Shown here one piece after another: positions 641 to 2,683 of a stretch of DNA of 7,463 nt. A program made the translations under genes and the position numbers. This DNA comes from an uncultured Caryophanales bacterium (GTDB lineage: Bacteria > Bacillota_I > Bacilli_A > RF39 > UBA660). The first letter of the stretch is position 1; each line of letters starts with the position of its first letter. The DNA is taken from the NCBI GenBank assembly GCA_937897245.1, contig CALCBO010000141.1, forward strand, positions 1 to 7,463, written 5' to 3'. The notes under the pieces are model-generated. The model searched no databases, was not told where the DNA came from, and saw nothing but the letters and a program-made list of their open reading frames with translations.

Positions 641-1900
641 ATGAAGGACTATTCTAATTGGCATCCGTCTCGTGAAGAACGTCTGAGATATAACGCTTTA
701 AAAACGTTTGGTACTCACGCTAAATATGGAGACGAAGATGAATTTGCTATGGTCAATGGTGAATTTAAGGCAAGAGTTATTGTAAAAGACCACACGAATC
801 CGCTGAATTTTGGTTTAGAGGATAAGAAGATGTATTTTGTCAATGACCCAAAACGCCAAGTCTGCCGAGGAGATATTATATCTGGTATTGATGACCGAAA
901 TTATATCGTTGTAACGATACCAGAATCGAATGGTGTGATTTCTAAATGTAGAGGGCGTAAAATGTATGACACAATGTCTTTTGTAAAAGATGGCCAAGAG
1001 CATGTTTTTGATTGTGTTGTAGCAAAAGGTTTACTGTATGATTCTACGTCTTATGTGACCGAAACCACAGTGTTTACAGAAGAGGACTTTATCGCTCTGA
1101 TTGTTCAGTATAATGAAATTACTCAAACTATTCAAATGTTTGATATTGTTATAGTGAACGGAGAATATCATAGAGTTGTTAAAGTTGACCCGCATAGATT
1201 AAAAGAATATCCTGATGAAAAGGGTGTTCTGCAGTTAGTGCTGACAAAAGCAATGACTTGCGTAGCTGCGGACGACTCTGAAGACATTATGAAAACGGAC
1301 ACTCTTATTGACCACAGATATGGCATTGAGCCATTTAATATAATCGGAATATTGCGTTATGCTAAGTTAAAAGAACGAATCTATAATTCCAAGGCTCGTG
1401 AAATTTTAACTCCACATAATGTTTTGCAGCCGGGAGATATTATCGAAGCAACATTTTTAAGAAACCCTACGGTAGATGACTCTACAGAGACACGTATGTA
1501 CTTGTGTCAGTCACTGATTGACATGAGAGAAAATTACGACTCTGCGTTTTTGATTGACTGTAATGCACAGTTTAATATCAAAGATGACAACGGAGATGCC
1601 TATACTGTCTACGCGTATTTTGAAAATAACTCAACTCAGCTGATGAGTAATGAGCGAAATTCTAATATGTGGAATGATAACAGCAAATTCAAGTGCCTCG
1701 TTCAAAGTAATCCGCTTACTCGAAAATTAGGTAAGGAAATAGCTAGAGTTATTATTGACGGAGAAGGCTATGAAATTGTTGGTACAGACAGATTGTCTGC
1801 TGAAGGAATAATTGGCGTTGAATTTGTAGCTAGCTTTATCAATCCAAGTTTGGACAATTTGGAATTGCAGATTGCTGACTATTATAGGTACAATGCTATG
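641..1900 (+). other. Phage head-tail adaptor-like segment of the chimeric frame
   Basis: About 420 residues without membrane segments, opening with WHPSREERLRYNALKTFG, typical of phage proteins that begin with an N-terminal helix. Two similar modules seem to follow each other: one around residues 77-206 (RGDIISG, a cysteine near 124, GEYHRVV at 174-180, then a GVLQLVL strand) and one around 265-400 (PGDIIEA, a CLV strand, GEGYEIV at 374-380, then GIIGVEFV). The segment ends with the LELQIADYY phrase I associate with Firmicutes siphovirus head-tail joining proteins. It uses CTG for leucine at least seven times (the last is codon 334, at 1640), whereas the sigma half never uses it. Likely role: connecting portal and tail in the virion. 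The family assignment is from memory of the motif. Confidence 0.5.
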
Positions 1901-2683
1901 GAAGATGTCACTTCAGATGAAGAATTTGAATATGCTGTTCGTGCTGAACAAGGTGATGAAGAAGCTAAAAGAATGTTAGCTGAATCTAACTTACGTCTAG
2001 TTGTTAGTATAGCTAAAAGATATGTTGGACGTGGAATGCTATTCTTAGACCTAATCCAAGAAGGAAATATTGGCCTAATGAAAGCAGTTGATAAATTTGA
2101 CCCTACAAAGGGATATAAATTCTCAACTTATGCCACTTGGTGGATTAGACAAGCTATTACACGTGCTATTGCCGATCAAGCAAGAACTATCCGTGTACCA
2201 GTTCATATGGTTGAAACAATTAATAAACTAGCAAGAATTCAAAGACAATTAACTCAAGAGTTAAATCGTGAACCAACTGATGAAGAAATAGCTGAAAAAT
2301 TAGGGATAAGTGTTGAAAAAGTACGTGAAGTATATAAAATATCTCAAGATCCTGTATCTCTAGAAACTCCAATTGGTGAAGAAGATGATTCACATTTGGG
2401 TGATTTCATTAAAGATGAAAGAACTATGGGACCAGAAGAATATGCCACTGTTGAAATGCTAAAAGAAGAATTAAGAGGTGTTCTTTCTACCTTAACTGAA
2501 AGAGAAGAAAAAGTTTTACGTTTGCGTTTTGGTTTAGATGATGGTCAATGTCGCACCCTAGAAGAAGTAGGACAAATATTTGGGGTTACCAGAGAAAGAA
2601 TTCGTCAAATAGAAGCAAAAGCTCTAAGAAAACTAAGACATCCTTCTCGTTCTAGAAAATTAAAGGATTTCTTGACAGATTAA
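641..2683 (+). CDS. rpoD: Chimeric open frame: phage head-tail adaptor-like N-terminus fused to RpoD/SigA sigma factor core
   Basis: One 680-residue frame holds two unrelated halves. Residues 1 to about 420 resemble virion adaptor proteins and end in the phage-type phrase DNLELQIADYYR (405-416). Residues from about 424 are a primary sigma-70 factor: region 2.1-2.2 (about 438-490), region 2.3-2.4 with WW at 500-501 and the -10 contacts Q504 and T507 (E. coli Q437 and T440), region 3.0 RTIRVPVHM, region 3.2 SLETPIGEEDDSHLGDFI, and region 4.2 with R651, E652 and R655 (E. coli R584, E585, R588). Region 1.1 and the DPVRxYL half of region 1.2 are missing. The start at 641 has GATGGTG upstream. The sigma half overlaps trmK by one base. 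No natural family has this layout that I know of; an assembly join or recombination inside rpoD is more likely than a working fusion. Confidence 0.75.
   Translation: MKDYSNWHPSREERLRYNALKTFGTHAKYGDEDEFAMVNGEFKARVIVKDHTNPLNFGLEDKKMYFVNDPKRQVCRGDIISGIDDRNYIVVTIPESNGVISKCRGRKMYDTMSFVKDGQEHVFDCVVAKGLLYDSTSYVTETTVFTEEDFIALIVQYNEITQTIQMFDIVIVNGEYHRVVKVDPHRLKEYPDEKGVLQLVLTKAMTCVAADDSEDIMKTDTLIDHRYGIEPFNIIGILRYAKLKERIYNSKAREILTPHNVLQPGDIIEATFLRNPTVDDSTETRMYLCQSLIDMRENYDSAFLIDCNAQFNIKDDNGDAYTVYAYFENNSTQLMSNERNSNMWNDNSKFKCLVQSNPLTRKLGKEIARVIIDGEGYEIVGTDRLSAEGIIGVEFVASFINPSLDNLELQIADYYRYNAMEDVTSDEEFEYAVRAEQGDEEAKRMLAESNLRLVVSIAKRYVGRGMLFLDLIQEGNIGLMKAVDKFDPTKGYKFSTYATWWIRQAITRAIADQARTIRVPVHMVETINKLARIQRQLTQELNREPTDEEIAEKLGISVEKVREVYKISQDPVSLETPIGEEDDSHLGDFIKDERTMGPEEYATVEMLKEELRGVLSTLTEREEKVLRLRFGLDDGQCRTLEEVGQIFGVTRERIRQIEAKALRKLRHPSRSRKLKDFLTD
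1880..1925. other. Probable join between phage-like and chromosomal DNA
   Basis: The left protein family ends at about residue 416-420 (1886-1900), and recognisable sigma sequence starts at about residue 424-429 (1910-1927). Composition and leucine codon choice change across the same place. No insertion sequence, inverted repeat or clear duplicated core is visible here. GATGAAGAA at the boundary also recurs at 1954 and 2279 with small variations, so short microhomology is possible. Confidence 0.6.
1910..2683 (+). other. rpoD: Sigma-70 primary sigma factor segment (RpoD/SigA regions 2-4), 5'-truncated
   Basis: From about residue 424 the frame aligns by eye with B. subtilis SigA from the end of region 1.2 to the C-terminus, closing with LRHPSRSRKLKDFLTD in the same register as E. 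coli RpoD (29 residues after the region 4.2 arginine in both). All core-binding, -10 and -35 recognition motifs are present, so this is the housekeeping sigma, not an ECF or sporulation factor. Codon use is that of the right-hand genome: TTA and CTA for leucine, no CTG. The missing front part would normally hold region 1.1 and the first helix of region 1.2. An in-frame ATG at 1898 has AGGT eight bases upstream and could give a 261-residue product, but this is probably fortuitous. Confidence 0.85.

What the first reader, a model, noticed from the sequence alone, without database searches (positions are those of the whole stretch)
641..2683. One open frame joins a phage virion adaptor to a housekeeping sigma factor
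Seen: residues 1 to about 420 are phage head-tail-like and residues about 424-680 are an RpoD/SigA core with intact regions 2 to 4, with no stop between. Known: primary sigma factors carry regions 1.1 and 1.2 in front, not virion proteins, and rpoD-trmK is a chromosomal neighbourhood. Inference: most likely an assembly chimera or a recombination into rpoD that is in frame by chance (one in three). If real, it would be a structural protein carrying a sigma factor, which could be delivered with the virion to redirect host transcription.
Basis: partly seen in the sequence, partly recalled or inferred. Interest (0 to 1): 0.8.

Follow-up and report, generated by a model that had tools for sequence, protein, structure and literature searches.

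The report
Chimeric contig: phage gene glued to rpoD
The apparent fusion of a phage protein with a bacterial housekeeping sigma factor is almost certainly an assembly artefact: two unrelated genes that happen to share a short identical word were joined at exactly that word.

Summary
The open frame is real as text (641-2683, 680 aa), but it is two broken genes. Residues 1-430 match a 540-570 aa phage-type protein (closest 97% identical); that family runs on for another ~127 residues, which the window lacks. Residues 424-680 match RpoD regions 2-4 (up to 98% identical) of uncultured Bacilli, in normal synteny with trmK and the genes behind it. All 93 RpoD relatives listed carry the region 1.2 motif; the window does not.

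The two matches overlap only in TSDEEFE (nt 1910-1930), the one site where the 26 phage and 93 sigma relatives share a word of seven or more residues. The in-frame join is therefore expected, not a one-in-three accident. Going upstream, similarity to rpoD DNA stops at nt 1910 in 50 of 50 loci tested (of 70 fetched). Synonymous codon usage, tested separately, changes best at nt 1910.

None of the 119 other listed hits covers both halves, and the fused protein is held from this one 7463-bp contig only. Best reading: a metagenome contig misjoined at a shared word of at most 21 bases. Reads were not available, so a rare in vivo recombinant is not strictly excluded. A virion-delivered sigma factor has no support.

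The parts
2..181 (+). C-terminal piece of a probable phage gene (59 aa, open at the contig start)
   Evidence: Weak similarity over 28 residues to gp93 of Bacillus phage SPbetaL1, the gene before gp92 (E 1e-05 for a single comparison); no PHROG or Pfam match
201..629 (+). phage protein of unknown function, phrog_14090; 26% identical to SPbetaL1 gp92
   Evidence: best E only 0.04 in the whole collection; 1e-13 as a single comparison
641..1909 (+). N-terminal 423 codons of a phage-type protein of normally 540-570 aa; its C-terminal ~127 residues are missing
   Evidence: GC3 0.326
1910..1930 (+). join: at most 21 bases encoding TSDEEFE, a word found in both parent families
1931..2683 (+). rest of rpoD (regions 2-4) of an uncultured Bacilli species; regions 1.1 and 1.2 are missing
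   Evidence: GC3 0.132
2683..3351 (+). trmK, tRNA (adenine(22)-N(1))-methyltransferase, the normal chromosomal neighbour of rpoD
   Evidence: 84% identical in L001
3514..7462 (+). further bacterial chromosome: ORF 3514-4854, DUF421 (YetF) 5290-5934, GHL10 5979-7121, prepilin-like 7118-7462
   Evidence: all six genes from the sigma part on in the same order in 17 of 75 loci

Best explanation
The window is a chimeric metagenome contig. The left part (1 to about 1909/1930) comes from a large phage, probably of SPbeta-like gene order. The right part (about 1910/1930 to 7463) comes from the chromosome of an uncultured low-GC Bacilli species. A shared short DNA word (at most 21 bases, encoding TSDEEFE) bridged the two in the assembly graph, or less likely in library amplification. 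The frame stays open because both genes read that word in the same frame. Shown: two unrelated parents, the exact boundary, the shared protein word, truncation of both genes, and no second copy of the pair among the hits listed. Inferred: that the word was shared at DNA level with the phage parent, and that the joining happened in silico or in the library rather than in a cell.
For: Of the 120 hits listed out of 7987, one is the window itself; of the other 119, 0 align over both halves. The fused protein is a cluster of 1 sequence on 1 contig of 7463 bp. All 26 phage-type relatives end their match at residue 430 and are 540-570 aa long; in the 18 of 26 where the word or a near variant was located, 126-129 residues follow it. 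93 of 93 sigma relatives have the motif DPVRMYL/DPVKMYL of region 1.2 (the motif's assignment is recalled). In 50 of 50 rpoD loci that hold the degenerate word, out of 70 fetched, identity to the window stops at nt 1910: 0 matching bases directly upstream, and 14-17 of the upstream 60 identical. TSDEEFE, with SDEEFEN/TSDEEFEN at the same site, is the only shared word of 7 or more residues. Synonymous codon usage, tested without homology, changes best at nt 1910: gain 51.0, against a maximum of 31.8 in 60 permutations. GC3 falls from 0.326 to 0.132. The six genes from the sigma part to the prepilin-like ORF stand in the same order in 17 of 17 loci that hold all six; of 47 loci with at least four of them, 46 keep the order and L034 does not. 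Four related genomes searched with the ORF each hold one rpoD of 92-97% identity in an open frame of 365-368 codons, and no match to the phage half at E 0.001. Chimeric contigs from k-mers shared between genomes are a described fault of metagenome assembly (PMC7299287, passages read).
Against: Reads and coverage were not available. The DNA of the phage parent was not found (searches gave no confirmed relative), so the shared DNA word on the phage side is inferred from protein: 14 of 26 relatives carry TSDEEFE, and the closest, P0002, has TSDEDFE. The shared DNA could therefore be shorter than 21 bases. Sharing a 7-residue word is not itself very rare between two such sets: 69 of 200 shuffles had one. 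What is telling is that the join lies on it. The codon-usage peak is broad: 49.9 at nt 1889, 48.5 at nt 1943. The passages read in PMC7299287 speak of closely related species and of sequencing errors linking graphs, not of two unrelated genomes linked by one short word.
Confidence: 0.95

Rival explanations
1. A real but incidental recombination in a cell: phage DNA joined the rpoD gene through the shared short word, giving a rare, probably dead-end or transducing-type molecule that was sequenced.
For: The join lies on a shared word, which microhomology recombination would also use.
Against: It would remove regions 1.1 and 1.2 of what looks like the only primary sigma gene (one match above 90% identity in each of 4 related genomes). 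It is held from one contig only. No phage gene lies beside rpoD in the loci fetched: the three phage ORFs have 0, 0 and 1 matches in 75 loci, the one being L075, which was fetched for that very match.
Confidence: 0.04
2. A genuine phage structural protein that carries a sigma factor core and delivers it with the virion to redirect host transcription.
For: Only the open frame itself.
Against: No second example (0 of 119 listed hits). Codon usage changes at the join. The normal host-chromosome neighbourhood trmK-ORF-DUF421-GHL10-prepilin follows. The phage protein loses its C-terminal ~127 residues. The sigma part is 96-98% identical in protein to ordinary chromosomal RpoD in its six best matches.
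Confidence: 0.01

Closest known systems
Primary sigma factor RpoD/SigA of uncultured Bacilli (rpoD-trmK locus)
   Same: Regions 2-4; spacing of 773 bases from the word to the trmK start in 49 of 50 loci and in the window (L011 has 832); gene order behind trmK
   Different: Regions 1.1 and 1.2 are replaced by phage sequence
540-570 aa phage-type protein family (P0002-P0021, P0023, P0025, P0041, P0050, P0053, P0057; PF27197 in the precomputed annotation)
   Same: Residues 1-430, closest 97% identical
   Different: The C-terminal ~127 residues are missing
SPbeta-like Bacillus phages (SPbetaL1 gp92 and gp90)
   Same: Gene 201-629 is 26% identical to gp92. gp90, two genes on, shares the N-terminal start MKDYSN and matches to phrog_16444 and phrog_5251
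   Different: In the window the long protein follows directly, in SPbetaL1 gp91 lies between; gp90 is 216 aa against 557; hhalign probability is only 6% (E 0.0062), so the kinship is a lead
Chimeric contigs in de Bruijn graph metagenome assembly (PMC7299287, passages)
   Same: Sequence of two genomes linked through shared k-mers
   Different: The passages speak of closely related species and sequencing errors; assembler, k and reads are unknown here

Membership tests
Primary sigma factor (RpoD/SigA) | Sigma-70 regions 2, 3 and 4 | tested here: met
Primary sigma factor (RpoD/SigA) | Region 1.2 in front of region 2 | tested here: not met
   No region 1.2 model among the 3 Pfam matches; 93 of 93 relatives have the region 1.2 motif
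Phage-type 540-570 aa protein family | Full length with C-terminal part | tested here: not met
   Match ends at residue 430 in 26 of 26; 126-129 residues missing, from the 18 of 26 where the word was located
Genuine fusion protein | At least one independent homologue covering both halves | tested here: not met
   0 of 119 listed hits; the other 7867 matches were not listed and not examined
Assembly chimera | Join on sequence shared by the two parents | tested here: met
   At protein level TSDEEFE; at DNA level only the rpoD parent's relatives could be tested
Assembly chimera | Composition step at the join | tested here: met
Assembly chimera | No spanning reads or a coverage step | not testable with these tools
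   no reads available

The most novel reading that the evidence does not exclude
A phage virion protein that naturally carries a host-derived primary sigma core lacking region 1, acquired by microhomology recombination into a host rpoD, and that could alter host transcription on entry.
Probability: 0.01. Interest if true: 0.85.

Novelty: not a real feature. Interest (0 to 1): 0.06.

Why it matters
It removes a tempting but false case of a virion-borne sigma factor. It also shows a simple test for such fusions: where each parent's alignment ends, whether the join is a shared word, and where codon usage changes.

Tried and rejected
Phage parent DNA: no confirmed relative in viral contigs (in 11, 18 and 26 some stretches matched a pattern but none was confirmed by tblastn), none in the phages collection by DNA or by protein at E 1e-5; at E up to 10 only 7 records with E 0.9 to 4. 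None in 392 genomes of the phylum (the tool notes that an empty answer there shows nothing). In 386 genomes of the family, 1 had a weak match (27% identity, L075).

First test for 'both halves' used a loose limit (alignment start before residue 380) and flagged 51 proteins. These turned out to be sigma alignments dragged into residues 375-423 at 24% mean identity, against 83% from residue 424 on. With the limit at 350, none remained.

SPbeta: besides gp90, gp88 was compared with the phage family and gave nothing; gp91, gp89 and gp88 match other PHROGs.

Structure of the phage relative P0002 (mean pLDDT 74, pTM 0.53): of 1195 Foldseek matches, 1 has E <= 0.001, with TM-scores of 0.11-0.12. Most of the 50 rows shown are Ig-like or antibody domains, typically of about 100-135 residues. 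I take these to fit the C-terminal beta domain that the window lacks, but the rows do not give the range.

Literature: a search for a sigma factor fused to a virion protein (5 terms, all required) found 0 papers; such a strict search says little. Two searches on chimeric contigs were seen as listings only; of PMC7299287 I read passages.

Full report
What is there. ORF 641-2683 is open for 680 codons. Its second part carries sigma-70 regions 2, 3 and 4, and no region 1 model matches. Its first part matches phage families, two of unknown function (phrog_16444, phrog_5251) and weakly phrog_161, head closure Hc1. Upstream lies a phrog_14090 gene (201-629). Downstream lie trmK, an ORF without a Pfam match, DUF421, GHL10 and a prepilin-like ORF.

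Two parents. A search of 5.8 billion proteins gave 7987 matches, of which 120 are listed and were examined: the window itself, 26 phage-type proteins of 540-570 aa and 93 sigma factors. None of the 119 others aligns with both halves. A looser first count had flagged 51, but there the stretch before residue 424 was only 24% identical, against 83% after it. A homologue with both halves should outscore those with one, so it should have been in the list; the remaining 7867 matches were not examined. The fused protein itself is one sequence on one contig, 7463 bp, i.e. this window.

Where the join lies. All 26 phage-type proteins end their alignment at residue 430. Of the 93 sigma proteins, 37 start at residue 423, 5 at 420-432, and 51 at 375/376 by the spurious extension just described. 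The overlap is TSDEEFE, nt 1910-1930. In the DNA of rpoD loci from related genomes (50 of the 70 fetched hold the degenerate word; the other 20 were not examined for this), identity to the window stops exactly at nt 1910: no matching base directly upstream in 50 of 50, and 14-17 identical of the 60 bases upstream, about what chance gives. Downstream, over 774 bases, the ungapped identity is 81-87.5% in 49 and 65% in one, L011, whose spacing to trmK also differs. Independently of any relative, the best single changepoint of synonymous codon usage within the ORF falls at nt 1910 (gain 51.0; 60 permutations gave at most 31.8). The peak is broad (49.9 at nt 1889, 48.5 at nt 1943), and GC3 drops from 0.326 to 0.132.

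Why there, and why in frame. Between the 26 phage-type and 93 sigma proteins, the only shared words of seven or more residues are TSDEEFE and SDEEFEN/TSDEEFEN at the same site; TSDEEFE occurs in 14 of 26 phage-type and 27 of 93 sigma proteins. Such a word can arise by chance (69 of 200 shuffles had one), but the join sits precisely on it. A join guided by a shared word keeps the frame, so the open frame needs no luck. The DNA of the phage parent was not found, so how many of the 21 bases were shared is not known; the closest phage-type relative has TSDEDFE there, the second closest TSDEEFE.

What each side lost. The phage-type family continues 126-129 residues after the word (in the 18 of 26 sequences where the word or a near variant was located). 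All 93 sigma relatives have the region 1.2 motif in front. Four related genomes each have one rpoD of 92-97% identity in an open frame of 365-368 codons, and no match to the phage half. The six genes from the sigma part to the prepilin-like ORF stand in the window's order in 17 of 17 loci that hold all six, and in 46 of 47 that hold at least four, of 75 loci (L034 is the exception). So the right part is ordinary chromosome. The left part resembles the SPbeta gene order: gene 201-629 is 26% identical to gp92 of SPbetaL1, and gp90, two genes on, shares the start MKDYSN and two PHROG matches with the 557-aa protein. That kinship is a lead only (best E 0.04, hhalign probability 6%).

Verdict. This is a chimeric contig, most likely joined during assembly at a shared short word. 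Chimeric contigs from shared k-mers are a described fault of metagenome assemblers (PMC7299287, passages read, which speak of related species and sequencing errors). In the same list, 6 of 93 sigma proteins have 40 or more N-terminal residues that match no other listed sigma N-terminus: P0026, P0028, P0048, P0051, P0052 and P0114, each on a single contig. P0051 (ABC transporter) and P0052 (recombinase; both names recalled from the Pfam numbers) look like further chimeras, while P0114 has only a lysine- and glutamate-rich extension that may be natural. Their joins were not analysed. Without reads, a rare recombinant in a cell cannot be strictly excluded. A virion-delivered sigma factor has no support.

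Noticed in passing
proteins P0026, P0028, P0048, P0051, P0052: Other single-contig proteins in which unrelated N-termini (by precomputed Pfam numbers, names recalled: Abi_2, none, HTH, ABC transporter ATPase, recombinase) precede an RpoD core; probably further chimeras at rpoD, joins not analysed.
   Followed up: partly
proteins P0022 and P0024: RpoD sequences that, read by eye, hold an internal partial repeat around regions 2-3, each on a single contig; possibly assembly joins between rpoD strains or with another sigma factor.
   Followed up: no
window 641-1930 and 201-629: A family of large phages (relatives on contigs up to 165 kb), perhaps of SPbeta-like gene order, whose 557-aa protein had no confirmed relative in viral contigs or the phages collection.
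   Followed up: partly
L075: A distant relative (27% identity, residues 234-365 of P0002) of the phage protein in a 217-codon frame of a genome drawn from the family of G001, a relative of the rpoD parent.
   Followed up: no
L034: The one locus of 47 in which the best prepilin-like match lies in front of the sigma gene instead of behind it.
   Followed up: no
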